A stretch of DNA of 64,000 bases. It comes from Candidatus Tumulicola scandinaviensis. GTDB lineage: Bacteria > Vulcanimicrobiota > Vulcanimicrobiia > Vulcanimicrobiales > Vulcanimicrobiaceae. The stretch lies in assembly GCA_003140835.1 (NCBI GenBank), contig PLLA01000121.1:178735-242734 (forward strand). The letters are read 5' to 3'. Positions 37,546 to 58,215 of this stretch are shown one piece after another. Each line of letters begins with the position of its first letter. The first letter of the stretch is position 1. Made by a program: the position numbers and the translations under genes. A model generated the notes under the pieces. It ran no database searches, was not told where the DNA came from, and was given only the letters and a program-made list of their open reading frames with translations.

Positions 37546-37594
37546 TCCGAGTCGAATACCGATTCTGGCGGGAGCGTGTAGGAATCGAATCTCT
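37546..37594. repeat. left att site (tRNA-Sec 3'-end copy 1)
   Basis: A 49-base sequence identical to 48117-48165. Its central 30 bases (37560-37589) are identical to the 3' end of the tRNA-Sec gene (58116-58145), covering CCA, the acceptor strand and part of the T arm. It marks the left boundary of the tandem insertion. Beyond the core it diverges from the tRNA (TCTCT instead of CCTAC), as expected for an attL formed by recombination in the core. Confidence 0.88.
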
Positions 37595-38179
37595 AAGACG
37601 TGGTGTCACCTCGTCGAGACTCGATGCGCCTCACCTCAGTTCGTGCGTGAATGCCCCTCGCGACATTGCGACTCATTGTGACTCGGGGCAGCTCGTAGCG
37701 GTTGATTTGTCCGAGTTAGTCCGAATCAGTCCGAGTACGATTCGGGTTCGCCCAGGTGCGTCGGTGTCCGGAGCCACGTGCACAACCCATCGAGATTCGC
37801 CAACGGGAATCGAATCGGTCGCATAGGGGCCGCATAGAGTCGTTGCGGGTCGTTAGGAGCAACGTTTCGTGCGGGTATGAGGCCGCATTGGGGCGTCTCA
37901 GGTCGGGTTGGGACGCTGCCGATGGCCACCGTTTGGCCACCGAAGAGGCCCCGAACGTTTTTGATGTGGACTCGGGCGCAAACCGAAAGCGGTCTACCGT
38001 CAACTCTTAAAGCAGGCAACTAATGGTAACAAGCGACACCTCGCTTGCTAGTGCAGCCGCGCCGTGCTAAAATCCGAACAGCCAACCAGGTGCCAGTCAG
38101 GTTCGTGGGAAGGCAATCGTGTTTTTTCCACGCTGGACCCTTTATGGGCTCGGTGTCGTTGTGCTTAAACGGAGAAACT

Positions 38180-39547
38180 ATGCACTCACGAATAGGCGCA
38201 GCGATTGTCGCCTTTACCGTTATTATTTTTGCCGGGTGTTCCGGTACGTCACAATCGAATCTCACGCCGGCTCCGGGCGGCGGCGCTGGCATGCCACCAT
38301 CTGCCGTATCGTGGGCATCCGCAAACAAGCCATCGCTGACGCAAGAGAGCGTCATCTATACCTTCCAAGGCGGTAGCGACGGCGGGAATCCGTTTGCAGG
38401 CTTGCTCGCGCGGTCCCGCGAGCTCTACGGTACGACGTTCAGCGGCGGCACGGGGCCGAGCGGCGGCAACGGCACGGTGTTCAAGCTGTCGCCGTCGGGC
38501 ACCAAGAGCATCCTCTACACCTTCCAAGGCGGCACTGACGCTGCAAATCCCCAGGCGGGCTTAATCCGCAAGAACGGCGTGCTGTACGGCGACACCGACT
38601 ACGGCGGAGGCGCGACTCAATGCACCGGCGGCTGCGGGGCAGTGTTCGCGTTGACTCCTTCAGGCAGTGCTTATACCGAGCGTGTCATCTACGCGTTTCA
38701 GGGCGGCAGCGACGGCGCATCTCCGGTGGGAGGTCTTCTCAGCGACGCAAGCGGCGCGCTCTACGGCACGACAGTTGACGGCGGTGGGGCTACAGCATGC
38801 ACCGGCCTCACACCTGGCTGTGGGACGGTGTTCAAGTTGACTCCTTCGGGCTCCAACTACACGGAAACCGTCCTCCACAGTTTTCAAGGCGGAAGCGACG
38901 GCGCAGGTCCGCGTGGAACCTTGATAGCCGACAACACGGGCGCGCTCTACGGCACGACATATTATGGCGGTAGCGGGACTTGCTCGGATCCTTCCGGGTT
39001 TACTGGTTGCGGGACGGCGTTCAAACTGACGCCCTCGGGCTCCGGCTACATAGAGAGCGTCATCTACAACTTCCAAGGCGGAACGAATGACGGCGCGAAT
39101 CCGCGGTCCGCTCTACTGCGCAAAAACGGCGCGCTCTACGGCGCGACCACACACGGCGGAGCACATGGCGCGGGCACCGTGTTCGAGCTTACAGGTTCGA
39201 GCTATACCGAACGCGTGCTCTACTCTTTCCTAGGTGGCCGGGACGGCCGGTCTCCATCGGACGAGGACGGCCTCCGTGCCGACAGTAATGGCGCTCTCTA
39301 CGGCACGACCACCTTTGGCGGTGTGGCTGTCTGCGTCGCCGGCTGTGGAACGGTGTTCAAGTTGACTCCTTCGGGCTCCAACTACACCGAAACCGTCCTT
39401 CACCGTTTTCAAGGCCCGGGTGACGGCAAAAACCCACGCGGAAGCGTTACCGCCGGTGTGGCTGGCGCGCTGTATGGTACGACCAGTGGCGGCGCTAACC
39501 ACGCATGCAGCGGCGGCTGTGGGACTGTTTTTAAAGTGGCGCCTTGA
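38180..39547 (+). CDS. GloVer-type repeat lipoprotein (7 repeats)
   Basis: A 455-residue lipoprotein with lipobox IFAGC-S. It contains seven repeats of about 55 residues, each with the pattern (Y/H)xFQGGxDG, LYGTTxxGG and GTVFKLTPSG; this is the choice-of-anchor tandem repeat named GloVer after its motif. The repeats probably form a beta-propeller. The ATG at 38180 follows CGGAGAAA. Function unknown; surface location inferred from the lipobox. It is the first gene of element 1. Confidence 0.88.
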   Translation: MHSRIGAAIVAFTVIIFAGCSGTSQSNLTPAPGGGAGMPPSAVSWASANKPSLTQESVIYTFQGGSDGGNPFAGLLARSRELYGTTFSGGTGPSGGNGTVFKLSPSGTKSILYTFQGGTDAANPQAGLIRKNGVLYGDTDYGGGATQCTGGCGAVFALTPSGSAYTERVIYAFQGGSDGASPVGGLLSDASGALYGTTVDGGGATACTGLTPGCGTVFKLTPSGSNYTETVLHSFQGGSDGAGPRGTLIADNTGALYGTTYYGGSGTCSDPSGFTGCGTAFKLTPSGSGYIESVIYNFQGGTNDGANPRSALLRKNGALYGATTHGGAHGAGTVFELTGSSYTERVLYSFLGGRDGRSPSDEDGLRADSNGALYGTTTFGGVAVCVAGCGTVFKLTPSGSNYTETVLHRFQGPGDGKNPRGSVTAGVAGALYGTTSGGANHACSGGCGTVFKVAP

Positions 39548-39938
39548 TGGTCGGCGAGCGTCGTGGTGTGTCCACCATGATGACGGCCTAATCGCATTAG
39601 TGTCGGAAGAGAGTGGTACGAGCCATTGAGCAAGTGCCTCTCTCTTCGCGCACCGTTTTGACGGATTGCCGTAAACGCCGTAAGTCCAGCGCGCGTAGTT
39701 CACGTGCGCTCTGTCAGGATGCGTCAAACGAGCAAACGGTTATCTTAGGGTTGCCATTGAAAGCGGCGGTCTTGAAATGCCACAATCGACGGTCACTCGC
39801 ACTCATGGGTGGTCATCGCTGGCAGCGGCGTGAGGGCCAGCGGTCATGGAAAGACACCGATGGTGCTGTATGGTCACTGCTGACTGCAACCAAACTGCAA
39901 CCAAAACGCAATGGTACAGGCAGCGATAGTGCAAATGA
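39548..39938. other. region without a recognisable gene
   Basis: About 390 bases between the GloVer gene and a convergent membrane-protein gene. The only open frames are short and lack ribosome binding sites. A short direct repeat, CTGCAACCAAA-CTGCAACCAAAA (about 39887-39908), is the only visible structure. Confidence 0.5.
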
Positions 39939-40304
39939 TTACCATGTCGGTTGAGTTGAGGCTCGCATCGCAGAAACTCCGGGGCCTATGCCATGAACAA
40001 CGCCGGTAAGGGCGGTGAGCAGAGTAGGAAAGGGCGAGAAGGCGAGCCCAATCCACAAGCCGGGCATGAACCGACGCTCGCTGTTCCTCGTGCGAAGGTT
40101 TGCCACAGTGAGTGAAATCAGGCCGATGGCGGCATATAGCGCAAAGCAAAGAAGATAGACCGGGCGTCCGCTCGTCGTATTCCAACTCTGGTTTGCTGTA
40201 ATCGGATTCAGGACAAGTGGGAAGACCACGAGCACAATGAAAGCGCATCCGGACGCTACTCCGAGCAGCAGGTCCGCTAAGAACAAGACGGTTTGGCGAT
40301 TCAC
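39939..40304 (-). CDS. small integral membrane protein
   Basis: A 121-residue protein with three to four hydrophobic segments (about 8-32, 48-68, 80-104). No family is recognised. The third-position base use resembles the AT-richer genes around it. It may belong to the element's cargo. Confidence 0.55.
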   Translation of the reverse strand: MNRQTVLFLADLLLGVASGCAFIVLVVFPLVLNPITANQSWNTTSGRPVYLLCFALYAAIGLISLTVANLRTRNSERRFMPGLWIGLAFSPFPTLLTALTGVVHGIGPGVSAMRASTQPTW

Positions 40305-40406
40305 GATACGAGCGCGGCGCCTAACTCCGAGCCAGCGCCTGGCCTAGCTCGGCCCTCAACGCCACGAGATATTCGCGGAGGGTAACCTGTTCGCATCTCC
40401 GACAGT

Positions 40407-42867: not shown

Positions 42868-42890
42868 CCGCTTAAGGTTAGACGCGACCG

Positions 42891-45215: not shown

Positions 45216-45565
45216 AGACCCAACTGTCTCGCATAAGGTGACATCGAACTTCGGGCTGCGGACGGGTCGTCGCGACCACGCGGCGTGGGGAGCGCGGCAG
45301 GCGTCCTATCGACAGGGTACCGAAGACACGGTCATGTTTCGGATGCTGGGCGTCACTGCGTTTATCGCTCAGATTGACCCTCAACCGTCACCGACCGTGA
45401 CGTACTCTACGGCTCAATCGCGCTATTTTTGATTTCGGTTATCGTGGCAAAGTCGCACTGGACGAGCTTACGCGGAAGCACCGACACTGGGGCATCGTCT
45501 GCGTGAACCGCGTAGTAGACGTTTTGTCGGAAAATGAGCCGTTTGCAACGGATTCGACAAGGCAG
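45216..45565. other. short region without a supported gene
   Basis: 350 bases with no open frame of convincing composition. The upstream part of the next gene's frame is open to 45503 but its best start is at 45566. Confidence 0.4.
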
Positions 45566-46690
45566 ATGGAAATGCCGATGCCTGACAGGTGCGACAAAAC
45601 TTCGCGCCTGAAAGCCCTCTTCGCGACCGTGGCCTTCGCATTGATTCCTTTGTCACCGACGATAGTGTGGGCGGATGCCCTAGGCGCGGACGCTGTAAGG
45701 GTTGAAGTTCAAGTGTTTCCTTGCGAGCAGGGCCTTGCGGTTACTCCAACCATTGGGGTCAGCAATCTTGAGCGGCAGTTTGCGAGGGTAGCCGTGTCGC
45801 CAACTTGGAGTCGAATGAAATCGACGTGGGTCGCTCGCTTCAGCGTTCCCGCAGGATATTACGCCGTTTACGCTCGCTCGGATTATTGCACGGGTGCATC
45901 GGAGCAGTGGGTCGCGATTCCGGGAGAGCTTCGCCATATCGCAATAACGCTCAACAAGCCGCCGCATATAATCGGTCTCGATGAAAACATGTTTGCGGAT
46001 ACAGTATACGGCAGATTACCAACGCCCGTGTCTCGAGTTGAGGTGATGCGCGTGGATAGCATTGTCGGCGAACAAGGGCGACGAGTTGCGACACTAGACG
46101 GCTCCTCGTATCAGTTAGGGTATCTCAGAGAGGGACCCTACATTGTGCGCGTTACGTTTGGAAATGTCGTGGTTAGCCGCGAAGTCGTATTTCCACCCCA
46201 TGCCTACGGATTTGCAATCGAAGCCGACTTGACGCCGCATGATGCGCAGGTGTTGGTTCAACAACAAGAGTCGGGGAGTGGCTTTGTAGACGTTCCGAAC
46301 TACGGGCACACAAAGGCTTCCACGTTTCGCTACGGGCGCGCAGCGGTCAGCGGATGGAGCACGGACCCGTTGCTTTTTCCGAGTGACTACAACACAGGAA
46401 CGCAAAGGCTTTCAATCGCCGTGTTGCGTGGCCTGGAGTCTGCTCGAAACTTTCTTGCTACGGACGCCCGAATACCAAAGAGTTTCGATAGCCTCTTGGC
46501 TTGGTCGGTAGGGGTTGGCGGGGACCCTGAGGAGGTGCGGATAGACTTAGTGCCGGTCGATATGGCGGCGTGGTTACGCGACGGACCAAAGACACCTCAA
46601 GGTTGTCTCATATTTGCAAGCCAACACTCAATCCGCTTGGTTGTAAATCCTAGCAACGGCCACGTTGACGACGTTATGATTTGTCCATGA
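45566..46690 (+). CDS. secreted beta-rich hypothetical protein
   Basis: A 374-residue exported protein with a signal peptide ending near VWA-DA. The middle resembles carboxypeptidase-regulatory-like folds (VPAGYYAVYARSDYC, then EGPYIVRVTFGNVVVSREV). The last 150 residues are unfamiliar and end in RLVVNPSNGHVDDVMICP. The ATG at 45566 follows AAGG; a GTG at 45503 is in frame. It is followed by another TonB-C protein 55 bases later, suggesting an export-linked group. Confidence 0.65.
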   Translation: MEMPMPDRCDKTSRLKALFATVAFALIPLSPTIVWADALGADAVRVEVQVFPCEQGLAVTPTIGVSNLERQFARVAVSPTWSRMKSTWVARFSVPAGYYAVYARSDYCTGASEQWVAIPGELRHIAITLNKPPHIIGLDENMFADTVYGRLPTPVSRVEVMRVDSIVGEQGRRVATLDGSSYQLGYLREGPYIVRVTFGNVVVSREVVFPPHAYGFAIEADLTPHDAQVLVQQQESGSGFVDVPNYGHTKASTFRYGRAAVSGWSTDPLLFPSDYNTGTQRLSIAVLRGLESARNFLATDARIPKSFDSLLAWSVGVGGDPEEVRIDLVPVDMAAWLRDGPKTPQGCLIFASQHSIRLVVNPSNGHVDDVMICP

Positions 46691-46745
46691 AGTTCTGGAA
46701 CGAGTTTGGAAACGCAGGTAAGTTCATTTTGGGAATCGGTGCTCT

Positions 46746-47104
46746 ATGATTTTCGGGTTGACCCTCTTTGGGATAATCGCATCGAACGCCATGGCCACCT
46801 CGACGCCATCACCGTCGCCGTTGCCTACGGCAACTATCTGTCCAACAACCAGGCTAATATCAAAGAACCGGCGTTCCCGGACTACCGAAATACGTCATTC
46901 GCCCCTTACACAAGTCGAGTGAAGGTCGTCGTTAACCCTGATGGTTCCGTAAAATCGGTTTCAATCTACCAGACCAGTGGCTATCCGGGCGCAGACGAGG
47001 CGACCATACAAGCCGCCCTGCACAGCACCTATACCCCCGGCTCGGTGAACTGTCAGCCCGTTGAAGGCTGGTACATCTTTAGGGCGGACTTCAATCCTGA
47101 CTAA
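46746..47104 (+). pseudogene. TonB-like domain protein with signal peptide in another frame
   Basis: The signal peptide (MIFGLTLFGIIASNAMATST, then a Pro/Ser linker) starts at an ATG at 46746. About 33 codons later the homologous TonB-like domain (SNNQANIKEPAFPDYR, RVKVVVNPDGSVKSVS, SGYPGADEATIQAAL) continues in a different frame to 47104. A one- or two-base change near 46840 separates them. This is a third member of the TonB-C group, either mutated or hit by an assembly indel. Relatives at 42891 and 44337 are intact. Confidence 0.65.
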
Positions 47105-47216
47105 AGACCGCTCAGACGAATCACGAACATCGCTTGCGGCGAGGGAGCGGTGGAAGTCGGAGTTTAGAGCAACACTTTGGAGTCTCCTCAATCCCGGCGT
47201 CACCATTGACCCTTCG

Positions 47217-47438: not shown

Positions 47439-47439
47439 C

Positions 47440-48381
47440 ATGGGACGAGAAGGCTGGTATCGGCGGCGAACATGGACCAAGACGGACGAGGAAGAGTTCT
47501 TCTCACGATTGTCGCGGTCGCGCGGTGCGTTTAATAAGGTGCAATATCTTCGCATCCAAGCCCTACATCTCCAGGAAGCAGAGATGCCAAGTCAGGCCCT
47601 GACGCTCTTGGAGCGAGCGCAAATGGACTACCCAGAACAACCCGGCCAAATGGGCGGTATCCTGATGCAAGAAGCAGAGTGCCGTTGGTCAACTGGCGAC
47701 CGTGCCGGTTCATTTGAAGCGTATATGAGAGCACTTGCGGCGCAATACCGCTACCCGAACGTCATTCGTGCTATTGCTTTGTCATTCGCCCAAAGATTTT
47801 ACGACCATGATGGCGGCAGCTACGCGGGTATTCTACTTGACGCCATTGGTGAAGAACTGAAAAGCTGGTCCGGGCTGGAGCCTTATATGAAAGTCCGTTA
47901 TGCCGTCGTAATGGCGCGGTTGCACTCGCATTTGAACGAAAAAAGTGATGCGGGACAATGTGCGAAGATTGCACTGGAGAATCTCCGCCGATTTGTACGC
48001 GCACGTCTCACCTGCAATGCTCGAGGGCGCCGCGAACTTGCTCGACCGTATAATCGCGTCGGGGCGCAAGGTCAGCGGGGAGAAGTGAATTTAGAGCCCC
48101 GATTTGTCCGAGTTAGTCCGAGTCGAATACCGATTCTGGCGGGAGCGTGTAGGAATCGAATCTCTGAAATGCCGCCTGGCCTCGTGGTAGATCACATAAT
48201 CTCGTGGCGATTCGCGCGTAACGGACACCCCGCGAGCAGCGATTCGATGGGATTCGGAGCGACTCGGCGCGGCTCATTGTTCCGAGTTGTTCCGAGTCGT
48301 CGCGCAAGAGCGCAAGGCGGAGACGCGCAAATCGCGGGTAGGGCGCGGCGCTCCGGCGCGATCGGGAGGGTGACTAGTTAA
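47440..48381 (+). CDS. TPR-like protein truncated at the element junction
   Basis: An open frame of 313 codons, of which only about the first 180 look original. These are helical with TPR-like repeats (AFNKVQYLRIQALHLQEAE, PSQALTLLERAQMDY, MQEAECRWSTGDRAGSF). From about 47981 the frame runs out of phase over the remains of an integrase gene and then through the second att copy, giving Arg-rich nonsense. The original C-terminus was probably lost in a deletion that removed most of that integrase. Confidence 0.6.
   Translation: MGREGWYRRRTWTKTDEEEFFSRLSRSRGAFNKVQYLRIQALHLQEAEMPSQALTLLERAQMDYPEQPGQMGGILMQEAECRWSTGDRAGSFEAYMRALAAQYRYPNVIRAIALSFAQRFYDHDGGSYAGILLDAIGEELKSWSGLEPYMKVRYAVVMARLHSHLNEKSDAGQCAKIALENLRRFVRARLTCNARGRRELARPYNRVGAQGQRGEVNLEPRFVRVSPSRIPILAGACRNRISEMPPGLVVDHIISWRFARNGHPASSDSMGFGATRRGSLFRVVPSRRARAQGGDAQIAGRARRSGAIGRVTS
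47981..48088 (+). pseudogene. C-terminal remnant of a tyrosine integrase
   Basis: In frame from 47981 the sequence reads ISADLYAHVSPAMLEGAANL and then LDRIIASGRK, ending at the TGA at 48086-48088. The intact integrase at 56827 ends with VTADTYAHVSPAMLHGAANL and LDRIVESGRKTG. The catalytic Tyr and everything after it are kept; the rest of the gene is gone. It lies 28 bases before the second att copy, as the intact gene lies 50 bases before the third. It is therefore the relic of element 1's integrase. Confidence 0.85.
48117..48165. repeat. middle att site (tRNA-Sec 3'-end copy 2)
   Basis: 49 bases identical to 37546-37594; the 30-base core 48131-48160 is identical to the tRNA-Sec 3' end. It is the junction between the two tandem elements: right end of element 1 and left end of element 2. 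Confidence 0.88.
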
Positions 48382-48686: not shown

Positions 48687-49862
48687 CTATAGCTGCGCGT
48701 CGGGAATTGGGCCTTCCACAGCGGAAATAAGTTCGCGAGCGAAGTAGTAGTTGGTTCCCTTGTAGCTGAAGGGATGTTCGCCGTCAAGAATCTTCAGTTC
48801 AATCAGTTTTTGTACGTGCGCTTTCGCCGCCGCATAGGTGATGCCGGTTAAGTCCACGGCACTTGGGACCGACGTGATTGGGATTCTAAAAAGGTCATCG
48901 ACCAGCTTATGTGTGTTGTGGGATCGCCCGTTCGCAATCTCGACTTCCTTATGATATCGCTTCCGAAGCTCATCTAAGTTCTTTGCTCGGATCACGGAGT
49001 CTCTCGCCTGAGTTTCGACGGCTTCTAAAAAGAATAGGATCCACGCCTCCCATTCTCCGTGCGTGCTAACTCTAAGAAGCCTATCATAATATTCTTCTTG
49101 TTGTTGCTGAAAGTACGCACTTATATATAGCATCGGCGCGGTAAGTATACGCTGACACTCGAGCCACGTTGAAATAAGAATGCGTCCAACGCGACCATTA
49201 CCGTCCAAGAACGGGTGAATAGTCTCGAACTGATAATGTGCAACTGCAAGCTTAATTAGCGGAGCTTCGTTCTCGTTCTGCAAGTAATCGGCTAGGTTCT
49301 CGACTAGTTCTCGCACAAAGGTCCAAGGTGGGGGTACGAACCGAGCCTGTCGGGGTGGTGGAGTCCCAATAACTACCGTCCGCTCACGTAGGCGGCCTGG
49401 TCCTGTCCGTTCAGGATCGTCATGCCGCACTAGGATGCCGTGGATTTCTGAAAGCAATGTAATGCCGATTGGGATTTCACGGCATCGTTGTCGGCTATAC
49501 TTGTAGGCTTCTAGATAGTCGGCCACGGCGAGCGAATCATTCTTGGGTTCGCGGACCAAGTCGAATAGGGCTAAGTCGGCAAGCGTCGTTCGCGTACCCT
49601 CGATCTTGCTCGATAGCAATGCCTCACGCCGGAGTGCGCTCAGGAACAGATTTTCGGGATCCGCAATGTTGCCTGCCACGCCGTCGAGCCTAGCTAGCTC
49701 GCTGTCCGCTCGGGATAGGGCGAGACGGATGGACTTACCACTAACCGCTGGTATATCTATCGGAAGGCGAAGCGGCAGGAAGGCTACCCCCTTGTTGCCA
49801 GCCTCGTCTGTAATATCTACTAGTTCGCCAGGAGCCTGAGGAGTGAAGTTCTCTCTAATCAT
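48687..49862 (-). CDS. Fic family protein (AMP-transferase type)
   Basis: A 391-residue Fic-domain protein. The catalytic loop HPFLDGNGRVGR (residues 216-227) is complete, with His for catalysis and the anion-hole Gly/Asn. An N-terminal inhibitory motif SSKIEG (84-89) places its Glu to block the active site, as in class II Fic proteins. The C-terminal 80 residues form a winged-helix-like domain (KAHVQKLIELKIL). These proteins AMPylate targets and are often self-regulated or part of toxin-antitoxin-like systems. The ATG at 49862 is preferred over a GTG at 49910, because palindromes and TATAAT boxes lie between the two. Confidence 0.9.
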   Translation of the reverse strand: MIRENFTPQAPGELVDITDEAGNKGVAFLPLRLPIDIPAVSGKSIRLALSRADSELARLDGVAGNIADPENLFLSALRREALLSSKIEGTRTTLADLALFDLVREPKNDSLAVADYLEAYKYSRQRCREIPIGITLLSEIHGILVRHDDPERTGPGRLRERTVVIGTPPPRQARFVPPPWTFVRELVENLADYLQNENEAPLIKLAVAHYQFETIHPFLDGNGRVGRILISTWLECQRILTAPMLYISAYFQQQQEEYYDRLLRVSTHGEWEAWILFFLEAVETQARDSVIRAKNLDELRKRYHKEVEIANGRSHNTHKLVDDLFRIPITSVPSAVDLTGITYAAAKAHVQKLIELKILDGEHPFSYKGTNYYFARELISAVEGPIPDAQL

Positions 49863-49872
49863 CGAGCAGCCA

Positions 49873-49941
49873 TTATAGTTTGTTGCCTCTAAACTATAAT
49901 CCTCGCCCACACCATTATAGGTTCGGTCGCCTAAACCATCA
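49873..49941. promoter_or_regulatory. two operator-like palindromes and TATAAT boxes upstream of fic
   Basis: The first dyad (49873-49899) has perfect nine-base arms TTATAGTTT and AAACTATAA around nine bases. The second (49915-49941) has the same length and spacing with imperfect arms (six of nine match). Their centres are 42 bases apart, about four helical turns. On the minus strand each holds a TATAATGG sequence. The nearer one would start transcription at or next to the ATG at 49862, giving a leaderless message. The layout suggests cooperative autorepression. Confidence 0.5.
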
Positions 49942-50391: not shown

Positions 50392-51414
50392 ATGCATCTT
50401 CTGAAGTCGCTGCGAGTTGCCTTAGGGCTCGTCATCTCCTCTGCGATCGTCGTGGGCTGCGGTAGCTCATCGCCACAACCAAGTCCAGTCGAGCCAGGAT
50501 TGCCCTTCGCTTTCCGCAGCAACGTGTCAGCAGTTCACCCGAGTCGCGAGAAATCGTGGATGCTGCCTGGAGCCCAGAAACAGTCCAACTTGCTCTACAT
50601 CTCGAACCCAGGCTCGTCGGACGTCACCGTTTACACGTATCTTAACGGCGGCGGCTTTACTTTAGTTGGAACGCTCACCGGGTTTTCATTTCCCGCCGGT
50701 ATGTGTACCGATAAAACCGGCAACGTGTGGATCCCCGATGGCGGTTCAGCGACGATCAACGAATACGCACATGGCGGCACGATGCCGATTGCTCAAATTC
50801 ACCTCCACGCAGGCCACCCTGACGATTGCGCCGTTGACACCAACACAGGTAATGTGGCCGTTGCCGTTTACATTCCAAACCAGAAAGATTCATATCCGTA
50901 TGGAATCGTCGATGTTTTCATCAATGGCCAGGGTAAAGGGATTAGGTACGGAACTGCGGAGGGCGCCTTCACCGAAGTTTATTTTGTTGCTTACGACAAC
51001 CAGGGCAATCTCTACGCTGACGGTGTGGATTACGACGGAATAACAGCACTATTCGAGCTTCCCAAGGGCGGAAACGTGTTCACGCGGCTGATCCTCAGCG
51101 GTGCCACGCTCTACTCGCCCAGCGCAATCAACTGGATCAAGCCGACGCTGCTACTGGGCGACCAGAACTTTCAGGGCCAAGGGACGAATGGGGCATATAA
51201 ATTGCTCGTGTCCGGCTCTACGGCGACCGTCGTGGGTACGCTGCCGTTCAACGGAACGCAGCAAGCCAACGGATTTTGGCGACGTGCTGGGAATGTGATC
51301 GTGCCCGACTACACCGGGAACATCGTGCGAGTTTACAACCTCTCGGACGGCTCGCTGGTTTCCACGCTCACCAACGGGATCTCGTCGCCGTTCGGCGCGG
51401 TGATCAGCCAGTAA
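50392..51414 (+). CDS. NHL-like repeat lipoprotein
   Basis: A 340-residue lipoprotein with signal peptide and lipobox (SAIVVGC-G). It is a close relative in architecture of the proteins at 33918 and 35052: LLYISNPGSSDVTVYTY, then VGTLTGFSFPAGMC, CAVDTNTGNVAVAV, DNQGNLYADGV and a C-terminal NGISSPFGAVISQ. A surface beta-propeller is likely. Unlike those two, it is carried inside element 2. It is followed by another lipoprotein gene after seven bases. Confidence 0.85.
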   Translation: MHLLKSLRVALGLVISSAIVVGCGSSSPQPSPVEPGLPFAFRSNVSAVHPSREKSWMLPGAQKQSNLLYISNPGSSDVTVYTYLNGGGFTLVGTLTGFSFPAGMCTDKTGNVWIPDGGSATINEYAHGGTMPIAQIHLHAGHPDDCAVDTNTGNVAVAVYIPNQKDSYPYGIVDVFINGQGKGIRYGTAEGAFTEVYFVAYDNQGNLYADGVDYDGITALFELPKGGNVFTRLILSGATLYSPSAINWIKPTLLLGDQNFQGQGTNGAYKLLVSGSTATVVGTLPFNGTQQANGFWRRAGNVIVPDYTGNIVRVYNLSDGSLVSTLTNGISSPFGAVISQ

Positions 51415-51421
51415 CCGGTTC

Positions 51422-52489
51422 ATGGGCAAACACGAAGTGCCGGTCATGCGGCTCCTTGTTATTGTGTTTCTTGCCGGCTGCTCAGTTGGCGGTTTCGGTG
51501 CTCAGGCTACGCCCCAGGCACTTGTGCCGCGTTCCGCGCGGCTGGCTGAAGGCACGTCGTATTTGTATGTGGCGAACGTCGGGAGCAACTCCGTGACGGT
51601 GTACGTGCCGGGGCAGAGCAAGCCGGTGCGCACTGTGACTAAGGGCTTGCGTTATCCGGTCGCTCTCGCATTCGATCAATCCAGCGACCTCTACGTGGCG
51701 AGCCTTGGGACTTACAAATACGGCCAATACCACAACGAGTCGGTGACTGAATATGCGGCAGGCACAACGTCGCTACTTCGTCGGATCACGGCTGGAATAT
51801 ATTCCCCCGCTTCGGTGGGATTGGATTCCTCTGACAATCTCTATGTCCTCAATAGCTTGCCTTTCAAGTCGAACCCGCCACGCGTTCTCGTTTTCGCCGG
51901 AGGTAAGTTGATCCGCAGCATCACTAACAGCATTGTAAACCCCGTAGTTATGGCGCTCGATTCATCTAACAACCTCTACGTCGCTAACGCGGCCAGCAAC
52001 GCGATCACCGTTTATGGCTTTGGACAAGGGACGCCATTTCGTACGATTACGACCGGAATCAACGAGCCCACGGCGCTGACGCTCGATGGCTCAAGCAACG
52101 TTTATGTCGGAAACCGCCTCGGCGGTCAGAATAATATGGGGACCGTGACCGAGTATGCGGCAGGATCCGATCCGACGCGCACGATCGTCAACGGCATCTT
52201 TGTCCCTGTCGCCCTCGCTGTCGACAATTCGGCGAATCTGTACGTTGCTAACGCAGGCGGTGGATCAGGTGTAGGGTCGATCACGGAATACCCGCCAGGC
52301 CGCACGACGGCGTCGCGCACGATCACCCAAGGGATATTTGATCCAGTTGCCCTCGCGACTGATGGCAAAGGGAACCTCTACGTCGCGAACGACGCATCGG
52401 TCACAGAATACGCACCGGGTAAGACATCTCCGCAATGGACCATCAGCAACCTCAATGGTCCCCGGGCGCTGGCGTTTGCCCCGCATTGA
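51422..52489 (+). CDS. NHL-repeat surface lipoprotein
   Basis: A 355-residue lipoprotein with lipobox VFLAGC-S and about seven NHL-like repeats (QSSDLYVAS, SSDNLYVLN, SSNNLYVAN, NSANLYVAN, GKGNLYVAN). It resembles the protein at 40407 in element 1. The second in-frame ATG at 51446 would give a shorter, more standard signal peptide. Its end overlaps the convergent gene by 38 bases. Confidence 0.83.
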   Translation: MGKHEVPVMRLLVIVFLAGCSVGGFGAQATPQALVPRSARLAEGTSYLYVANVGSNSVTVYVPGQSKPVRTVTKGLRYPVALAFDQSSDLYVASLGTYKYGQYHNESVTEYAAGTTSLLRRITAGIYSPASVGLDSSDNLYVLNSLPFKSNPPRVLVFAGGKLIRSITNSIVNPVVMALDSSNNLYVANAASNAITVYGFGQGTPFRTITTGINEPTALTLDGSSNVYVGNRLGGQNNMGTVTEYAAGSDPTRTIVNGIFVPVALAVDNSANLYVANAGGGSGVGSITEYPPGRTTASRTITQGIFDPVALATDGKGNLYVANDASVTEYAPGKTSPQWTISNLNGPRALAFAPH

Positions 52490-52932: not shown

Positions 52933-52981
52933 GTCGGTTCGGCGCTTCAAAAAGGCGGCGCACGACGGCTGGCGCGGCTAA

Positions 52982-53191
52982 TCATGGATTGCGCTTTCCA
53001 CGACATAGCGGGAATCTAGTGCACGAGAAAAAGACGCCGTAGGGCCCTTTCTTTGCTTCCATGCGACCATAGCAAAGCGGACACTTCTTACCGGGTACGA
53101 TCGTCGCACGCGCTTTTGGAAGTGCCGGCGGAAACCCGGCACTTGTAAGTGTGCTCTTACTCCAGCGTTTGGCTGGATTACGCTGCCTCAT
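52982..53191 (-). CDS. small protein with topoisomerase-type zinc finger
   Basis: A 69-residue basic protein whose C-terminal half is a C4 zinc finger of the topoisomerase I type: CPLCYGRM, then FFSCTRFPLC. Such fingers bind single-stranded DNA and occur alone in mobile elements. The start at 53191 lies eight bases after the previous gene's stop, so the longer open frame is not needed. It fits the DNA-processing theme of the operon. Confidence 0.65.
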   Translation of the reverse strand: MRQRNPAKRWSKSTLTSAGFPPALPKARATIVPGKKCPLCYGRMEAKKGPYGVFFSCTRFPLCRGKRNP

Positions 53192-53199
53192 TCTTAGCC

Positions 53200-53517
53200 C
53201 TAGTAATGCTCTCCGACCGACGCGCCACAGCGCTTGCAATCCTCGCCGGAATAGCCGACACGGAAGGCGCAATCGTCGCGGCTGGTCTCCAGCCATCGGC
53301 ATTCGCGAAGCAGACGTTGTGCAGCCATCACGGCATCATTTACCGTCGTCGCGTTCTGTTCGAGCAGAACGCGGATCGCGTCTCGATGGAGCCGAATCGT
53401 CTCTACCATTTCTGTATTGACCCGGCTATAGTGGACAAGCTCAACTCCGGTCGGACCTCCCAACCGTAGGTCGGCGCCCGTCGCATGGACGCGCCGCAAA
53501 AGCTCAGCGGCGATCAT
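53200..53517 (-). CDS. small TubC-N-like protein with Cys pair
   Basis: A 105-residue protein. The first 55 residues resemble the short TubC N-terminal docking-domain type (LLRRVHATGADLRLGGPTGV, then HRDAIRVLL), which in phages and elements often occurs as a free small protein. The end has a CKRCG knuckle. It overlaps the upstream ATPase gene by four bases, so it is part of the operon. Function unknown. Confidence 0.6.
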   Translation of the reverse strand: MIAAELLRRVHATGADLRLGGPTGVELVHYSRVNTEMVETIRLHRDAIRVLLEQNATTVNDAVMAAQRLLRECRWLETSRDDCAFRVGYSGEDCKRCGASVGEHY

Positions 53518-54941
53518 ACAGGCAACACGTCGCTAGCTGCAACCCCTTCCTCCCGCGTGCGAACGTACGAAGAAAGACGAATAAAGAGATTGTCGTGCTC
53601 CTCCTTTCGTCTTTTTTCGTTCGTTCGTCGGGGGATAGCGAAGGAAAGGATACGGTCTCGCCCGCCAGTTGCTTCGCGCTGAGTCTCGATCAGCGCACGG
53701 CCTTCGAGGGATCGCCGCGCCGCCTCTAGACGTTCGGCGCCCACGTTGCGGCCAAACAGCGCGTGCTGAGCGGCGCCATCGAAGCCTTCAGGATGAGCGG
53801 CGCGTAGAGCCTGCAACAGCCGGTCTTGTACGCGATCACCGCGGAGGCTGCCAAAAAGGTGCTCGACCGAATCGGCGCAGTAACGCCAAACGGCCTCAGC
53901 CGCAAACACGTGCTCGGAGCGGATGACCGCGGACTTGTCTAACAGCGCATAGGCGACAGACAGCCGCAGTCGTTGCGCTGCCGCGCGCGCCGTCACCGCG
54001 CCGGCAATACCCTCTCGATCGGGCTCGCCGTGGTAAAACTCACTCCACACTGCTTCGGCGTCCGGCGTGCGCGAAAGTACGCGCCGCTCTCGCGCAAAAT
54101 CCATCGCTGCGCGGAGGCGCTTCGCGAAGCCGCCGATGAGCGCCGGATTCAGCGAAGTTGGGCTGGGAATCCGTCGCGCGCGCTTCACGCACGCCAGCAG
54201 AACCCTGTTCGCGAAACCGTTGGTGAAGTCGGTCTCAGACATCTTTGCGAGAAGCTCGTCGGGTGTCACGTGCCCGAGCAACGACAAGTGAGCGCCCTCA
54301 GCGAGGCGTTGCTCTTTAGCGCGTACACTTTGCAAACGCCCTTCGTCCCATGCGCCGCGGAGAACCATCGATGCCGTGCTCCCGTCGCGGGCGTTGACCA
54401 CGAGCAAACGCGCAAATTCGGGCTCTATCACAAATGCGCGTTTCTCGACCGGTTCGCTCTCGTCGCTCCGTAGGTACCCACCTAGCCTCGCGACGATCGC
54501 CTCACCGGAGACGAAGCCACCAATGCGCGCAGCCGAAAACCAAGCGTCGTCGGCGGCGCGCAGAATCGGTCGAATGGCTGCAAGCGACGTTCCTTTTGCG
54601 CCCGATGCGGTGGGGCCGACAAGCGCAACAAAAAGCCGGGGCGGATGCTCGTCGTCGCCGACCATTGCGCGCGATTCGGCACCGGCTGAATTTCCGAATG
54701 CTGCGAGGAGCGTCAAGAGCATTGCAACGGGCGCGGCTTCGGTGTTTGGCGCAATCGCTTCGACGATCTCCCCTGCGAGACCGTACATCGCAGCTCGGTC
54801 GAGGGTGGGCCATGGATAGACGTCGCCCCACTCAGGCTCGACTGCGCTTTCAGGCTTGGCAACAGCCTCTTTGATGTCGGCGAGCAGACGGGGATCAGGC
54901 AATTCGCGAAGCAGGCGCGCTAGCGGAACCTTGTCGCTCAT
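53514..54941 (-). CDS. DUF3987-type ATPase, element replication protein
   Basis: A 475-residue protein with the layout of DUF3987/RepA-like helicase-ATPases carried by phages and plasmids. An N-terminal FPLP-like entry region (YPWPTLDRAAMYGLAGEIVE) is followed by a P-loop-like GPTASGAKGTS (about 109-119), an acidic VIEPEFARLL segment that resembles Walker B, and a C-terminal winged-helix-like part. The Walker A is degenerate, lacking the standard GKT. It overlaps the primase-like gene upstream by four bases, suggesting both act in element replication. Confidence 0.75.
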   Translation of the reverse strand: MSDKVPLARLLRELPDPRLLADIKEAVAKPESAVEPEWGDVYPWPTLDRAAMYGLAGEIVEAIAPNTEAAPVAMLLTLLAAFGNSAGAESRAMVGDDEHPPRLFVALVGPTASGAKGTSLAAIRPILRAADDAWFSAARIGGFVSGEAIVARLGGYLRSDESEPVEKRAFVIEPEFARLLVVNARDGSTASMVLRGAWDEGRLQSVRAKEQRLAEGAHLSLLGHVTPDELLAKMSETDFTNGFANRVLLACVKRARRIPSPTSLNPALIGGFAKRLRAAMDFARERRVLSRTPDAEAVWSEFYHGEPDREGIAGAVTARAAAQRLRLSVAYALLDKSAVIRSEHVFAAEAVWRYCADSVEHLFGSLRGDRVQDRLLQALRAAHPEGFDGAAQHALFGRNVGAERLEAARRSLEGRALIETQREATGGRDRILSFAIPRRTNEKRRKEEHDNLFIRLSSYVRTREEGVAASDVLPV

Positions 54942-55579
54942 GGCGCGCCCTCAGTCAAGCACCGACGCGGCTCGTGCTCAAGTGAGTGCATCGCCGAAGC
55001 CGCGGTGTCCTCGGCCTCGAGAAGTATAGCCTTCGGTGGTGGAAGCGACTCATCAAATGCGAGTGGGGCACCCAGGAGTTGGATGCTGGCAATCATCATC
55101 GCCCACTCAAAAATTGCCGGCCATGCTGGGTCCCTGTCGCGTCCCCCATACGCGCCTTCCCACAAGGGCCGTTGAACTGGCTCAAGCTCCATGCCATGAT
55201 GGCTTCGCGCCACTGTTGCTCGAATGACGTTGATCTCGCTCGTGCGTAGCAACCCTTCGATGCCGTACTGCTCGCGGTATCGCTCCGCCGCGATCACGAG
55301 CGCACGGCGGGCGTCGGCGGCGCTCGGTCGCGCTTTTTGCCGCGTCGCCTTCGGAGCGCAGTCGTGCTCAACAAACAAGTCCTGCATCCCGATTCCGATC
55401 GCGCTTACAACGCTTTCGATCGGGCAGCCCGCGAAACAGCGCAAGAGCACGCGCCCATCGCGCCCCTCGGCGATCGCAAGCGACGGGCGGCGATCGTCGT
55501 GTGCCGGGCAGCGTGCCATCCATTTGCCTTTGCCGGACGGCTTGGCGTCGCACCGCGCGGCGATCTCAGGCGTCGTCAT
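54938..55579 (-). CDS. CHC2 zinc-finger primase-like protein
   Basis: A 213-residue protein with a primase-type zinc finger at its N-terminus: C24, H27, C48 and C52 in RCPAHDDRRPS and LLRCFAGCP. No Toprim catalytic domain follows, only a helical region of about 140 residues, so it is a partial primase, as often found in phages and integrative elements, where the ATPase partner is separate. The ATG at 55579 overlaps the previous gene by four bases, which rules out the longer open frame. Confidence 0.82.
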   Translation of the reverse strand: MTTPEIAARCDAKPSGKGKWMARCPAHDDRRPSLAIAEGRDGRVLLRCFAGCPIESVVSAIGIGMQDLFVEHDCAPKATRQKARPSAADARRALVIAAERYREQYGIEGLLRTSEINVIRATVARSHHGMELEPVQRPLWEGAYGGRDRDPAWPAIFEWAMMIASIQLLGAPLAFDESLPPPKAILLEAEDTAASAMHSLEHEPRRCLTEGAP

Positions 55580-55791
55580 TCTTGCGATTCCGATACGAAG
55601 CGCGCGATTTCCGAATCCGCGTCTACGCCAAGACGCGCGAGCGCGGGAAGCGTCAATATCCGAACGAGACCGCGCCGACCAGACAACACGTGCGGAATTT
55701 TGCCAGATTGTAAGTCTGCGCGAACGGCGTGCTCGCCCTCGCCGGTAAGGGCGCAGTACTCGCGAACCGACAGCGTGAGGGGGCGATTCAC
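55576..55791 (-). CDS. HTH/excisionase-like small protein
   Basis: A 71-residue winged-helix-type protein (LTLSVREYCALTGEGEHAVR, then GKIPHVLSGRRGLVRIL) resembling excisionase or MerR-like DNA-binding proteins. In its position after the repressor it may be the excision regulator. It overlaps genes on both sides by four bases. Confidence 0.7.
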   Translation of the reverse strand: MNRPLTLSVREYCALTGEGEHAVRADLQSGKIPHVLSGRRGLVRILTLPALARLGVDADSEIARFVSESQE

Positions 55792-56018
55792 GAGACCTCT
55801 GCGGATTCAACGATCTCAAAGAGATTGTCAAAGTCGAGGCCAAGCCGCTCGCACATACGGCGCCGAACAAGCGCACCCACAGTAGCGCCGTGCATAAGGC
55901 GGCTGAAGTATCGAAAGTCGATGCCGACGATGCGCGCGAGCTCGGCTTGGCTGAGGTTCCTACGCGCACGGAGCTCCGCGATGGCGTCGGAGCGCAGACG
56001 AACACGTTTTCTTCCCAT
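55788..56018 (-). CDS. XRE-family HTH regulator
   Basis: A 76-residue DNA-binding protein with a Cro/CI-type helix-turn-helix (LSQAELARIVGIDFRYFSRL). It heads the leftward operon. The ATG at 56018 fits the HTH length; a longer open frame begins at 56054 and would overlap the divergent gene. Only 29 bases separate it from the divergent regulator, so one operator may control both, like a lysogeny switch. Confidence 0.78.
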   Translation of the reverse strand: MGRKRVRLRSDAIAELRARRNLSQAELARIVGIDFRYFSRLMHGATVGALVRRRMCERLGLDFDNLFEIVESAEVS

Positions 56019-56047
56019 GCTTGCAAAGATGCCTGAAAGGCGATAAT

Positions 56048-56830
56048 ATGGCAAGAGAAATGCAACGAATGTTAGAACCTCTTGCTATTCTGGCCGAGAC
56101 AGCTCCCTCGCCCGTCATGCGAGAGCTGGCGCAGGTCGCCGTAGCTCGGTCCTTTCGGCAAGAGTCCCTTGCCAAAGCCTTCGCTGAGCGCTCCGGGCTC
56201 CGCGTACAAGGCGCGAATGTCGGTCGGTACTTCCGATCGCGAGCCCCTCACACCGACACGGTAACGGCTTTCGCCGACGTTTTAGGGGTGAGTCCTGAGC
56301 ATATCCGGCTCGCTCGCGGTGAAGTGCTTTCGTCGGAGGAGAGCGCTGACGAACTGGCGACCCGAATCGGCCCAGATATTCGGAGCCTTCTATACCCGCA
56401 CGTTCGCGACCGTACCGAGCTCGACGCTCTGCTTATGCGCAACCACGATTCGAGCGTACAGCGCGCCGTTAGCGCCTACGCCCTCGAACGCGAGCGGGAG
56501 CAACACGGCATAATGCGTATGCAGCAGGTCGGCAGCGTGTATCTGCCCCGCCGCGTAATCGCCTTCTTCGAGATGCTGCATCCCGACGTCTCGCTCGACG
56601 ACCTGCTTCGACGATCGCCCATAGTAGGGGCGTTGTCATCTCTGTTCTTCGCTGCGCTGGGATATTTCAGCGAGAGCGACTGCGGTGCGATCATCGGCGT
56701 CGCGCGCGCGTTGCTCGTTGCAAGAGGCATCGATTGTGACCCGCTCGATCGCGACCTGCAAGACCAGAAAACTCAAGCTGAAGCCGCATTTCGCGAGCGC
56801 GGCTTCACGTTACACGGAGGCAACATATGA
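56048..56830 (+). CDS. HTH regulator encoded with the integrase
   Basis: A 260-residue protein. The first 90 residues contain an XRE-like helix-turn-helix (SLAKAFAERSGLRVQGANVG, then TVTAFADVLGVSPEHIRLAR). The remaining 170 form a mostly helical domain of unknown type, perhaps a sensor. The ATG at 56048 follows AAGGCG. Its stop overlaps the integrase start by four bases, so integration and this regulator are expressed together. Confidence 0.75.
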   Translation: MAREMQRMLEPLAILAETAPSPVMRELAQVAVARSFRQESLAKAFAERSGLRVQGANVGRYFRSRAPHTDTVTAFADVLGVSPEHIRLARGEVLSSEESADELATRIGPDIRSLLYPHVRDRTELDALLMRNHDSSVQRAVSAYALEREREQHGIMRMQQVGSVYLPRRVIAFFEMLHPDVSLDDLLRRSPIVGALSSLFFAALGYFSESDCGAIIGVARALLVARGIDCDPLDRDLQDQKTQAEAAFRERGFTLHGGNI

Positions 56831-58065
56831 AACATCATCGCCTTGGCGCCTGGATTGGGCAAGAGTCCTATCTAGACAAGGCCGGCAAGCGAAAGACGTG
56901 CTCGACGTGGGCGGTCAAATACGATGCCTTCGATCAGAAGCCCGGCGAGCGGCGCCAAGATACCGAGCGAGGCTTCGCGAGTGAGGCCGATGCTATCGCG
57001 TGGTGGGTGTTGCAAAGGCAGAATCGGCATCGTCCCGTTACTAAAGCAGAGGCGGTCAAGGAGGCCCCGATAACGCTCGACGCTTTCTTAGATCGCTGGC
57101 TCCAGGGGTGCGCGACGACAATGAGCATCGGAGCACTCGCCACGTGCGAAAAGCATACTCGCCTTTGGATTCGTCCGTCGCTCGGGCATGTTTTACTTTG
57201 CGACCTAGAGCGGTCGCCGGCGCTTATAGAGCAGGCGCAAGCGGCGTGGTTGACGCAGCCGCGTAAAGACAAGCGCGCTGGCGTAGTCACGCCTGGCTTC
57301 GTGAAGAGCGTGCGAAGCACGTTGAATACCGCCTTGAACCGTGCAAAGAAGGTCCGCCTCATTACCGTCAATCCGTGCGAGTTTGTCGATCCTCCGCGTT
57401 GCGAACGGGAAGAGATGCGTTCGCTTAGCCCTGAGCAAGTGCAACAATACCTAGCCGTCTTCGACCGCTCAGTGCTCGGAGCCGCGATCGCGACGGCCAT
57501 CGGCAGTGGCTGCAGGCGAGGCGAGTTGCTTGCACTGCGCTGGAGCGACGTTGACTTAGACCAAGGCACTCTGAGGGTCGCCCGGTCGTTGGAGCGCGTC
57601 ACAATCCGCACTGCGAAGCGGGAGCACTGCGAGCTACGGTTCAAGGAACCTAAGACGAAGCGCTCACGCCGCACAATCGCGCTACCACCGTTCGTGCTCG
57701 AGCGTCTCCGCCGTCATCGCCTCGAACAGGCTGAGCGCTTCTTCTCGGCTGGGTCCCGCCCCGATGGCAGCACCCTGCTCTTTGAGCGCGGCGGCTTGCC
57801 TTGGAATCCCAACACGTTCGGCCTGACGTTCGCCCGCATCGCTCGCGACGCGAAGCTTCCGAAAGTGCGCTTGCACGATCTGCGCCATTCGTTCGCATCG
57901 CTGCTGCTCGCCGGCGGGGCCGACCTCAAGACGGTTTCGACGGCTCTCGGGCACTCAACCATCGCCGTAACCGCCGACACGTACGCGCACGTTTCGCCAG
58001 CCATGCTGCACGGCGCGGCAAACCTGCTCGATCGAATCGTCGAATCAGGGCGTAAGACGGGCTAG
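56827..58065 (+). CDS. tyrosine recombinase, integrase of element 2
   Basis: A 412-residue phage-type integrase. The N-terminal ~60 residues are an arm-binding domain, followed by a SAM-like core-binding domain (about 85-195) and the catalytic domain. Catalytic residues seen: Arg in GCRRGEL (R230), HDLR (H350, R353), GHS (H376) and the nucleophile Tyr in DTYAHVSP (Y386). It sits 50 bases from the tRNA-Sec att core, pointing toward the tRNA, so it almost certainly recombines that site. A related relic lies beside att copy 2. Confidence 0.95.
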   Translation: MKHHRLGAWIGQESYLDKAGKRKTCSTWAVKYDAFDQKPGERRQDTERGFASEADAIAWWVLQRQNRHRPVTKAEAVKEAPITLDAFLDRWLQGCATTMSIGALATCEKHTRLWIRPSLGHVLLCDLERSPALIEQAQAAWLTQPRKDKRAGVVTPGFVKSVRSTLNTALNRAKKVRLITVNPCEFVDPPRCEREEMRSLSPEQVQQYLAVFDRSVLGAAIATAIGSGCRRGELLALRWSDVDLDQGTLRVARSLERVTIRTAKREHCELRFKEPKTKRSRRTIALPPFVLERLRRHRLEQAERFFSAGSRPDGSTLLFERGGLPWNPNTFGLTFARIARDAKLPKVRLHDLRHSFASLLLAGGADLKTVSTALGHSTIAVTADTYAHVSPAMLHGAANLLDRIVESGRKTG

Positions 58066-58115
58066 TTACAGCAGGCGCTAAGGGCGATTGTTCCGAGTCG
58101 TTCCGAGTCGCAGCA

Positions 58116-58145
58116 CGATTCTGGCGGGAGCGTGTAGGAATCGAA
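58116..58145. repeat. right att site (core in the tRNA-Sec 3' end)
   Basis: A 30-base core identical in all three att copies (37560-37589, 48131-48160, 58116-58145). It covers CCA, the acceptor 3' strand and most of the T arm of tRNA-Sec. Two tandem TTCCGAGTCG units lie just before it (58091-58110). It is where element 2 meets the intact tRNA. Confidence 0.88.
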
Positions 58146-58215
58146 CCTACCAGCCGCCCTGCGACGGCCTCAGCGATTTTGAAGACCGTGCGGACCACCA
58201 GATCCGTACGCTCCC
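58122..58215 (-). tRNA. selC: tRNA-Sec (anticodon UCA)
   Basis: A 94-base selenocysteine tRNA with encoded CCA. Hallmarks: an 8-bp acceptor stem and 5-bp T stem (13 bp together), a 6-bp D stem with four-base loop, anticodon loop CUUCAAA with UCA, and a 6-bp long variable arm closed by GCAG. Anticodon-stem pairing is only four base pairs followed by an A-C mismatch, slightly weak but tolerable. The gene lies on the minus strand with its 3' end used as att core. It implies a SelA/SelB selenocysteine pathway elsewhere in the genome. Confidence 0.93.

What the first reader, a model, noticed from the sequence alone, without database searches (positions are those of the whole stretch)
37546..58215. 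Tandem array of two ~10-kb elements integrated in the selenocysteine tRNA gene
Three copies of the tRNA-Sec 3' end (30-base identical core) lie at 37560, 48131 and 58116, spaced 10.57 and 9.99 kb. The integrase sits beside the intact tRNA, and an integrase relic sits beside the middle copy, as expected for two successive integrations at one site. selC is a known integration hotspot for enterobacterial islands and P4-like elements, but tandem elements of this type in this kind of lineage would be new as far as I can tell.
Basis: partly seen in the sequence, partly recalled or inferred. Interest (0 to 1): 0.85.

Follow-up and report, generated by a model that had tools for sequence, protein, structure and literature searches.

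The report
Three-layer mobile-element pile-up at selC
In a bacterium that likely belongs to the little-studied phylum Vulcanimicrobiota (Candidatus Eremiobacterota), two ~10-kb stretches bounded by copies of the end of the selenocysteine tRNA gene lie head to tail, likely left by mobile elements that inserted there one after another, and a short scar beside them suggests an even older third one.

Summary
Three identical 30-nt copies of the tRNA-Sec 3' end (37560, 48131, 58116) are the only ones found in the 4.0-Mb draft genome. They bound element 1 (10.57 kb) and element 2 (9.99 kb). Element 2 has an intact tyrosine integrase gene, an HTH ORF, a phage-type primase/helicase and a Fic (SoFic-like) gene. 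Element 1 keeps only about the last 33 codons of an integrase, fused by a deletion to a truncated ORF. I add three things. (1) Doubled 10-nt arm repeats sit at set offsets around the cores; sibling elements in tRNA-Met and tRNA-Leu genes have a similar layout with other repeats, so they are likely integrase arm sites. (2) The left flank (37503-37559) aligns with element 2's integrase end, the likely signature of a third, older, mostly deleted element. (3) Relatives have tRNA-Sec near the same conserved genes with less DNA between, and another genus carries a matching outer att site at this locus. This is textbook tandem accretion (a CIME-like decayed element beside an intact one) in a phylum for which my searches listed no such report. 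Excision, cis-mobilisation and satellite lifestyle are untested. Real and tidy, but a new member of a known kind.

The parts
58122..58215 (-). tRNA-Sec (selC), intact; its 3' end is the integration target
58116..58145 (.). tRNA-side att core (30 nt)
58092..58108 (+). doubled arm repeat TCCGAGT N3 TCCGAGT, starting 24 and 14 nt before the core (integrase side of element 2)
56827..58065 (+). intact tyrosine integrase gene, 412 aa (element 2)
   Evidence: PF00589 4e-22, weak Arm-DNA-bind_4 below cut-off; phrog_1 integrase 1.8e-67
56021..56830 (+). predicted regulator, overlaps the integrase start
   Evidence: weak phrog_8 transcriptional regulator, E 0.0027; no Pfam hit
55788..56054 (-). small HTH ORF
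   Evidence: phrog_8 1.3e-5, phrog_1468 repressor 3.7e-5
54938..55513 (-). primase zinc-domain ORF (191-aa part tested; start codon not determined)
   Evidence: phrog_6088 DNA primase 4e-11; 51% over 77 aa in the G092 element
53514..54941 (-). primase C-terminal/helicase-type protein, 475 aa
   Evidence: phrog_3022 DNA primase 2e-8; 57% over 428 aa to the C38 sibling
52982..53302 (-). zinc-ribbon ORF of element 2
   Evidence: PF01396 5.5e-7, below its cut-off
51422..52489 (+). beta-propeller (NHL/SBBP) protein, cargo of element 2
50392..51414 (+). predicted lipoprotein (by eye), cargo; 59% aa relative in the C38 sibling element
48687..49910 (-). Fic-domain protein, SoFic-like, candidate anti-phage defence cargo
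   Evidence: PF02661 and PF13784; PADLOC SoFic 1.1e-93
48281..48297 (+). doubled arm repeat, starting 150 and 160 nt after the start of the middle core (far end of element 2)
48131..48160 (.). middle att core (junction of elements 1 and 2)
48107..48123 (+). doubled arm repeat, integrase side of element 1
47987..48088 (+). integrase relic: about the last 33 codons and the stop
47440..47992 (+). truncated ORF of element 1; homologue on contig C116 is 220 aa; deletion joint to the integrase relic at 47985-47992
45503..47104 (+). cargo of element 1 (unknown protein and TonB_C protein); 45565-47992 is 84% identical to C116
38045..45215 (.). cargo of element 1: two GloVer-repeat proteins, NHL protein, two related proteins (one with TonB_C)
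37710..37736 (+). three arm repeats starting 150, 160 and 170 nt after the start of the left core (far end of element 1; the middle one is TCCGAAT)
37560..37589 (.). left att core
37503..37559 (.). probable scar: integrase 3' end plus one arm repeat of a third, older element
36912..37412 (-). VOC (glyoxalase-family) gene bordering the array; 92% DNA identity to G048 over 36909-37491
7370..23372 (.). conserved block that lies near tRNA-Sec in relatives

Best explanation
The 3' end of the tRNA-Sec gene is followed by two head-to-tail ~10-kb elements bounded by three identical 30-nt att cores, the inner one with an intact tyrosine integrase gene and the outer one with only about the last 33 codons of one, and they likely arose by successive site-specific integrations, each new element entering beside the tRNA and pushing the older one outward. 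Shown by sequence: cores, doubled arm repeats at set offsets, integrase gene next to the tRNA, the deletion joint in element 1. Inferred: the integrase binds the arm repeats and recombines within the core; element 1 lost its integrase by deletion and became a CIME-like passenger that element 2's integrase could still excise alone or together (10.6, 10.0 or 20.6-kb circles); an older related element stood left of 37560 and was deleted apart from about 57 nt. Element 2 is predicted to be a satellite-like integrative element that replicates after excision with its primase/helicase. How it moves between cells is unknown.
For: Cores unique in the draft. Arm pairs (TCCGAGT twice at 10-nt spacing, up to 1 mismatch per half): 5 places on the + strand of the window, all at att sites; 0 in 128,102 nt of other sequence from this genome; mean 0.12, maximum 1, in 50 shuffles of the + strand. 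A similar layout with different repeats in sibling elements at tRNA-Met (C38, attachment repeats 8.76 kb apart) and tRNA-Leu (G092, L113). Of 7 relatives of the integrase at 44% identity or more over the matched stretch, 6 lie on the 3' side of a tRNA gene and point towards it (Met: C38; Leu: G102, G092, G112, and L113 at 1.35 kb; Sec: G073); for the seventh, G070, the contig held shows no tRNA. Deletion joint: element 1 is 84% identical to C116 up to 47992 and matches the integrase from 47985. Scar: for 37499-37543 against 58045-58089, none of 1609 control windows reached the score under any of 5 scoring sets. The nearest matched block gene is 2.5 kb (G020) and 7.4 kb (G035) from tRNA-Sec but 34.8 kb here; 3.7 kb in G033 for a gene 38 kb away here. 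G086 carries the block and a matching outer att site on one contig.
Against: No exact empty site was seen. About 14 kb between the conserved block and the left core is not explained by the two elements. A first, stricter local test of scar homology was negative; the anchored test was designed after seeing the alignment. The last 6 nt of the core (GAATCG) occur nearly intact at this place in genus g36 without arms (G076, G082), so they are not element-specific. G086's outer att also has one arm repeat but no further similarity to element 2, so a native arm-like sequence cannot be excluded. On the minus strand of the window 2 further arm-like pairs occur, one at 16616 far from any att. One integrase relative (G070) has no tRNA in view. 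No excision data exist, and the genome is a 130-contig draft.
Confidence: 0.88

Rival explanations
1. The whole 20.6 kb arrived as one composite element: elements 1 and 2 were already joined elsewhere and integrated together in a single event.
For: All three att sites share one core and matching arm layout, so a joint circle would integrate identically. PMC5704250 (passages seen) says transfer of whole composites cannot be excluded and that conjugative transfer of CIME-ICE tandems has been observed.
Against: Element 1's integrase is largely deleted while element 2's is intact, and their arm repeats differ (GTCCGAGTTA-type against GTTCCGAGTCG-type), so they are not copies of one event; a joint arrival only moves the accretion to another cell.
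Confidence: 0.15
2. The left arm-like flank is native chromosomal sequence of attB, not a scar of a third element.
For: G086, of another genus, also has one arm repeat at the same offset with unrelated DNA beyond it. By eye, the chromosomal flank of the C38 sibling has a loosely arm-like CGACGGCAAG at the offset of its own arm.
Against: Of 29 tRNA-Sec flanks read (28 relatives and own), only the own one has GAATCG plus arm. Of four more, found by pattern and so not a random sample, two have doubled arms (G073, with integrase; G080, contig ends) and two have none. Similarity to element 2 runs past the arm into the integrase end.
Confidence: 0.25
3. The repeats are an assembly artefact or chance similarity.
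For: The genome is a draft in 130 contigs.
Against: Unique flanks on all sides within a 273-kb contig, different gene content in the two units, 0 control matches, and sibling elements of similar design at other tRNAs in other genomes.
Confidence: 0.03

Closest known systems
CIME / tandem accretion of ICEs and IMEs (ICESt1-related islands of Streptococcus thermophilus, cited there; tRNA-Lys composite of S. agalactiae), PMC5704250, passages seen
   Same: A decayed element that keeps both att sites, beside an intact element sharing the site, at the 3' end of a tRNA gene; order decayed-intact-tRNA; integration genes lost
   Different: No relaxase or conjugation gene among the ORFs tested; other phylum; tRNA-Sec; probable third layer
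PICI-type phage satellites (PMC10111431, passages seen); general description of phage satellites from the start of the abstract of PMC13376191 in a listing
   Same: About 10 kb, integrase plus regulator plus replication genes, no structural genes found in element 2, doubled attP motif in two positions, tandem pairs known, selenocysteine tRNA among PICI targets
   Different: No AlpA found in the ORFs scanned; no helper known; helper dependence untested
selC islands of Enterobacteria (LEE, SHI-2, PAI I-536; PMC7545054, passages seen)
   Same: Same target gene
   Different: Virulence islands, 17-111 kb in most of the selC rows seen; unrelated cargo and host

Membership tests
Tandem accretion with a CIME-like element | Decayed element flanked by both att sites | tested here: met
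   Cores at 37560 and 48131, with arm repeats
Tandem accretion with a CIME-like element | Integration genes lost | tested here: met
   Only about 33 codons of the integrase remain, at a deletion joint
Tandem accretion with a CIME-like element | Intact neighbour using the same att site | tested here: met
   Element 2 integrase gene intact, same core
Tandem accretion with a CIME-like element | Ancestor was an ICE or IME (transfer genes) | tested here: inconclusive
   No transfer gene among the nine element 1 ORFs scanned with Pfam (which also held VOC); element 1 is decayed
Tandem accretion with a CIME-like element | Excision or transfer in cis by the neighbour | not testable with these tools
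   Needs an experiment or reads
ICE/IME (element 2) | Relaxase or conjugation genes | tested here: not met
   None among the 10 ORFs scanned with Pfam and 9 with PHROGs
Phage satellite (element 2) | Integrase, regulator and replication genes, about 7-20 kb | tested here: met
   size 9.99 kb; the hit of the larger regulator is weak
Phage satellite (element 2) | No structural genes | tested here: met
   None among the 9 ORFs scanned with PHROGs
Phage satellite (element 2) | Packaged and spread by a helper phage | not testable with these tools
   No helper known; sibling elements G102 and G092 carry terminase
PICI | AlpA-type regulator | tested here: not met
   No AlpA hit among the ORFs

The most novel reading that the evidence does not exclude
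selC in Vulcanimicrobiota works as a layered landing strip: a previously undescribed family of ~9-14-kb satellite-like elements with doubled-arm attP sites and interchangeable primase modules keeps inserting at tRNA 3' ends, pushes older residents outward, and leaves decayed passengers and integrase-end scars that record the order of arrival; the newest integrase could mobilise the whole stack, defence and surface-protein cargo included.
Probability: 0.35. Interest if true: 0.6.

Novelty: new member of a known kind. Interest (0 to 1): 0.42.

Why it matters
It shows the accretion model, described in the review seen for Streptococcus and Proteobacteria, in a phylum known mostly from metagenome-assembled genomes, with what look like three decay stages at one site. 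It gives a recognisable signature (doubled arms at set offsets) for finding such elements in genomes without experimental genetics. It also shows tRNA-Sec used as an integration site well outside Enterobacteria, apparently without loss of the Sec machinery (a full-length SelB match lies on the same contig).

Tried and rejected
Empty site by the VOC gene: 3 of 38 genomes match, own included. The G048 match (92% DNA) is on a 3.8-kb contig with no tRNA and diverges about 50 nt before the left arm; the weak G019 match (32%) was not examined. Empty site in the same-genus genome G001: no tRNA-Sec and no SelB over the cut-offs. A fourth, degenerate core in the window: up to 10 mismatches allowed, only one further place, with 10 mismatches, at 56388. 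GAATCG as an element marker: dropped after searches found near-matches at plain tRNA-Sec genes in genus g36. Scar homology: local test negative, anchored test positive. The same anchored test for G086 against element 2, and for the scar against element 1 or G073: not above controls. Close relatives of the integrase in viral contigs: one weak 28% hit. Primase/helicase relatives in viral contigs: two at 38-39%, no tRNA in the stretches held, not pursued. A 24-nt core hit in IMG/VR (L128) is a different element with a different integrase in a tRNA-Sec gene, not a circular form of ours. Far att copy for G025: none in about 39 kb; for G112: none in the 19.7 kb held. Literature: 9 searches. Those requiring Eremiobacterota or Vulcanimicrobi with genomic island or integrase listed 5, 1 and 1 papers, none about such elements by title and start of abstract; none was opened. 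One search was uninformative (two of three terms sufficed; none of the 12 listed holds Eremiobacterota). Only the open PMC subset is held.
Full report
CHECK. tRNA-Sec lies at 58122-58215 on the minus strand. The 30-nt core at its 3' end is repeated exactly at 37560 and 48131. Within the 4.0-Mb draft, at up to 3 mismatches, these three are the only places, and the reversed control gives none. The left and middle copies are identical over 49 nt. The tRNA is intact, and a full-length SelB match lies on the same contig (C11:252891-254726), so integration has left the Sec system apparently complete.

LINEAGE. An integrase 85% identical is named from Candidatus Cybelea, which the taxonomy copy places in Vulcanimicrobiota. 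The phylum is therefore inferred, not printed for the window.

ELEMENT 2 (48131-58145). The integrase gene (412 aa) ends 50 nt before the core and faces the tRNA. It matches PF00589 (4e-22), with a weak, below-cut-off arm-binding domain. The residues I recall as catalytic for tyrosine recombinases are invariant in an alignment of six family members. Upstream are a predicted regulator (weak hit) and a small HTH ORF, then a primase zinc domain and a primase/helicase protein. The helicase part is 57% identical to that of a sibling element on contig C38, where it is fused to a Prim-Pol domain (PF09250, 3e-35). The zinc domain instead resembles a stretch of the G092 element (51% over 77 aa). The primase parts therefore look interchangeable. 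Cargo: a Fic protein scored as SoFic by PADLOC (1.1e-93) and two beta-propeller or lipoprotein-type proteins. No relaxase, terminase or capsid gene was found among the ORFs scanned (10 by Pfam; 9 by PHROGs).

ELEMENT 1 (37560-48160). It carries GloVer-repeat, NHL and TonB_C proteins. From 45565 to 47992 it is 84% identical to contig C116 of the same genome. There the last ORF is 220 aa; in element 1 it breaks off and continues directly into about the last 33 codons of an integrase. A deletion has thus removed the end of that ORF and nearly all of the integrase gene, while both att sites remain.

ARM REPEATS. TCCGAGT occurs in pairs 10 nt apart, starting at -24/-14 from the start of the middle and tRNA-side cores and at +150/+160 from the left and middle cores; the left core has -14 only, and a third copy at +170. 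Allowing one mismatch per half, such pairs occur at 5 places on the plus strand of the window, all in att sites; on the minus strand at 2 places, one beside the middle att and one at 16616, away from any att; in 128,102 nt of other sequence of this genome at 0; and in 50 single-base shuffles of the plus strand at a mean of 0.12, maximum 1. The C38 sibling at tRNA-Met (attachment repeats 8.76 kb apart, 1 mismatch in 25) has CCCGCAA pairs +15/+25 from the tRNA end and -127/-117 from the far copy. G092 and L113, at tRNA-Leu, have their own pairs at +35/+46 and -108/-96, and at +34/+45 and -98/-86. The offsets are not identical between clades, but one pair always lies close on the tRNA side and one about 85-140 nt inside the far end. 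The repeat changes with the integrase while the layout stays similar, as expected for arm-type binding sites. A doubled motif in two co-oriented copies around the attP centre has been described for helper-embedded PICIs, with integrase arm domains named as one possible binder (PMC10111431, passages seen).

THIRD LAYER. The left flank carries an arm repeat where plain chromosome is expected. Of 30 tRNA-Sec loci a pattern could read 29 flanks (28 relatives and own); only the own one has the arm. Of four further loci found by a pattern search, and so not a random sample, two have doubled arms by eye (G073, beside an integrase end 86% identical over 58 aa; G080, at a contig end) and two have none. 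The 45 nt left of the arm align with element 2's integrase 3' end and intergenic stretch with scores that none of 1609 control windows reached under each of five scoring sets. The similarity stops near 37503, 12 nt from where VOC-region similarity to G048 ends (37491). I read this as the integrase-side end of an older element, the rest deleted. Against it: a stricter local test was negative, the anchored test was designed after seeing the alignment, and a similar single arm in G086 lacks the extended similarity.

EMPTY-SITE COMPARISON. Parts of window 7.4-23.4 kb lie on the 3' side of tRNA-Sec in G009, G017, G020, G027, G030, G033 and G035. The nearest matched stretch is 2.5 kb (G020) and 7.4 kb (G035) from the tRNA, against 34.8 kb here; in G033 it is 3.7 kb, against 38 kb here; in the other four it is about 4-12 kb, against about 40 kb here. 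The two elements explain 20.6 kb of the excess; about 14 kb between the block and the left core remains unexplained. In G086 the block and a 55-nt match (91%) to the left att site lie on one contig. Its element has different repeats near that end (read by eye), so it looks like an independent insertion at the orthologous place.

OTHER USERS OF THE SITE. Among 31 relatives whose tRNA-Sec 3' side was fetched by search rank (flanks up to 20 kb, many cut short by contig ends), an integrase relative lies on the 3' side in G025 and G005, and the tRNA end is repeated in G010 (exact 24 nt, 5.8 kb away, around a C5-methylase, Vsr and UvrD-like genes, no relative of our integrase found) and G006 (degenerate, 5 of 24 mismatched, 2.3 kb). 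A viral-collection contig from an unknown host carries a ~9.7-kb element with another integrase in its tRNA-Sec gene.

FAMILY. At E <= 1e-80 the integrase has matches in 5 of 149 phylum genomes, own included; the primase/helicase in 7 of 149, own included, at E <= 1e-3. Of 7 integrase relatives at 44% or more over the matched stretch, 6 lie on the 3' side of a tRNA gene; for G070 no tRNA is in view. Siblings G102 and G092 carry terminase large subunit (phrog_38, 3e-105 and 4.7e-118), and G102 a tape-measure-like protein (3.5e-6), so the integrase lineage is shared with phage-like or satellite-like elements. That makes a satellite lifestyle for element 2 plausible, not shown.

COMPARISON. PMC5704250 (passages seen) describes this path: integration, decay to an element that keeps attL and attR (CIME), then a new integration beside the target gene. 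The mechanism is therefore known; host phylum, element family and the apparent three-step depth are what is new here. No result obtained here shows excision, replication or transfer.

Noticed in passing
L045:194-5977 (G010): 5.8-kb island between exact 24-nt tRNA-Sec ends, with C5-methylase, Vsr and UvrD-like helicase genes and no integrase found: a CIME-like, probable defence island.
   Followed up: partly
L128 (IMG/VR 3300012356_000129): ~9.7-kb element in a tRNA-Sec gene of an unknown host, 70-nt repeat at 98.6%, integrase only 25-30% similar; terminase- and prohead-protease-like ORFs by eye.
   Followed up: partly
G012:C9:228335-229459 and G038:C72:51664-52779: Fic genes (43-44% to ours) ~0.6 kb from the tRNA-Sec 3' end in two other genomes; 13 of 60 genomes, own included, match at E<=1e-40, so Fic genes may gather at this site.
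   Followed up: partly
window 36909-37491: VOC gene plus upstream region 92% identical in DNA to a 3.8-kb contig of G048, another family: recent transfer or bin contamination.
   Followed up: partly
G001: The only same-genus genome held has neither tRNA-Sec nor SelB over the cut-offs: probable loss of the Sec trait within the genus.
   Followed up: partly
L088 (C116:1554-3993): A 2.4-kb module shared with element 1 at 84% DNA, near a different integrase gene: cargo may move between elements of one genome.
   Followed up: partly
L046 and L037 (G041, G040): Integrase or integrase piece next to the 5' side of tRNA-Sec rather than the 3' side.
   Followed up: no
L076 (C38), integrase beside tRNA-Met: The sibling integrase reads in two frames near its N-terminus (frame break or assembly error).
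   Followed up: no
window 23.5-37.5 kb: About 14 kb between the conserved block and the array shows few matches in the tRNA-Sec stretches fetched from relatives; origin unexplained.
   Followed up: partly
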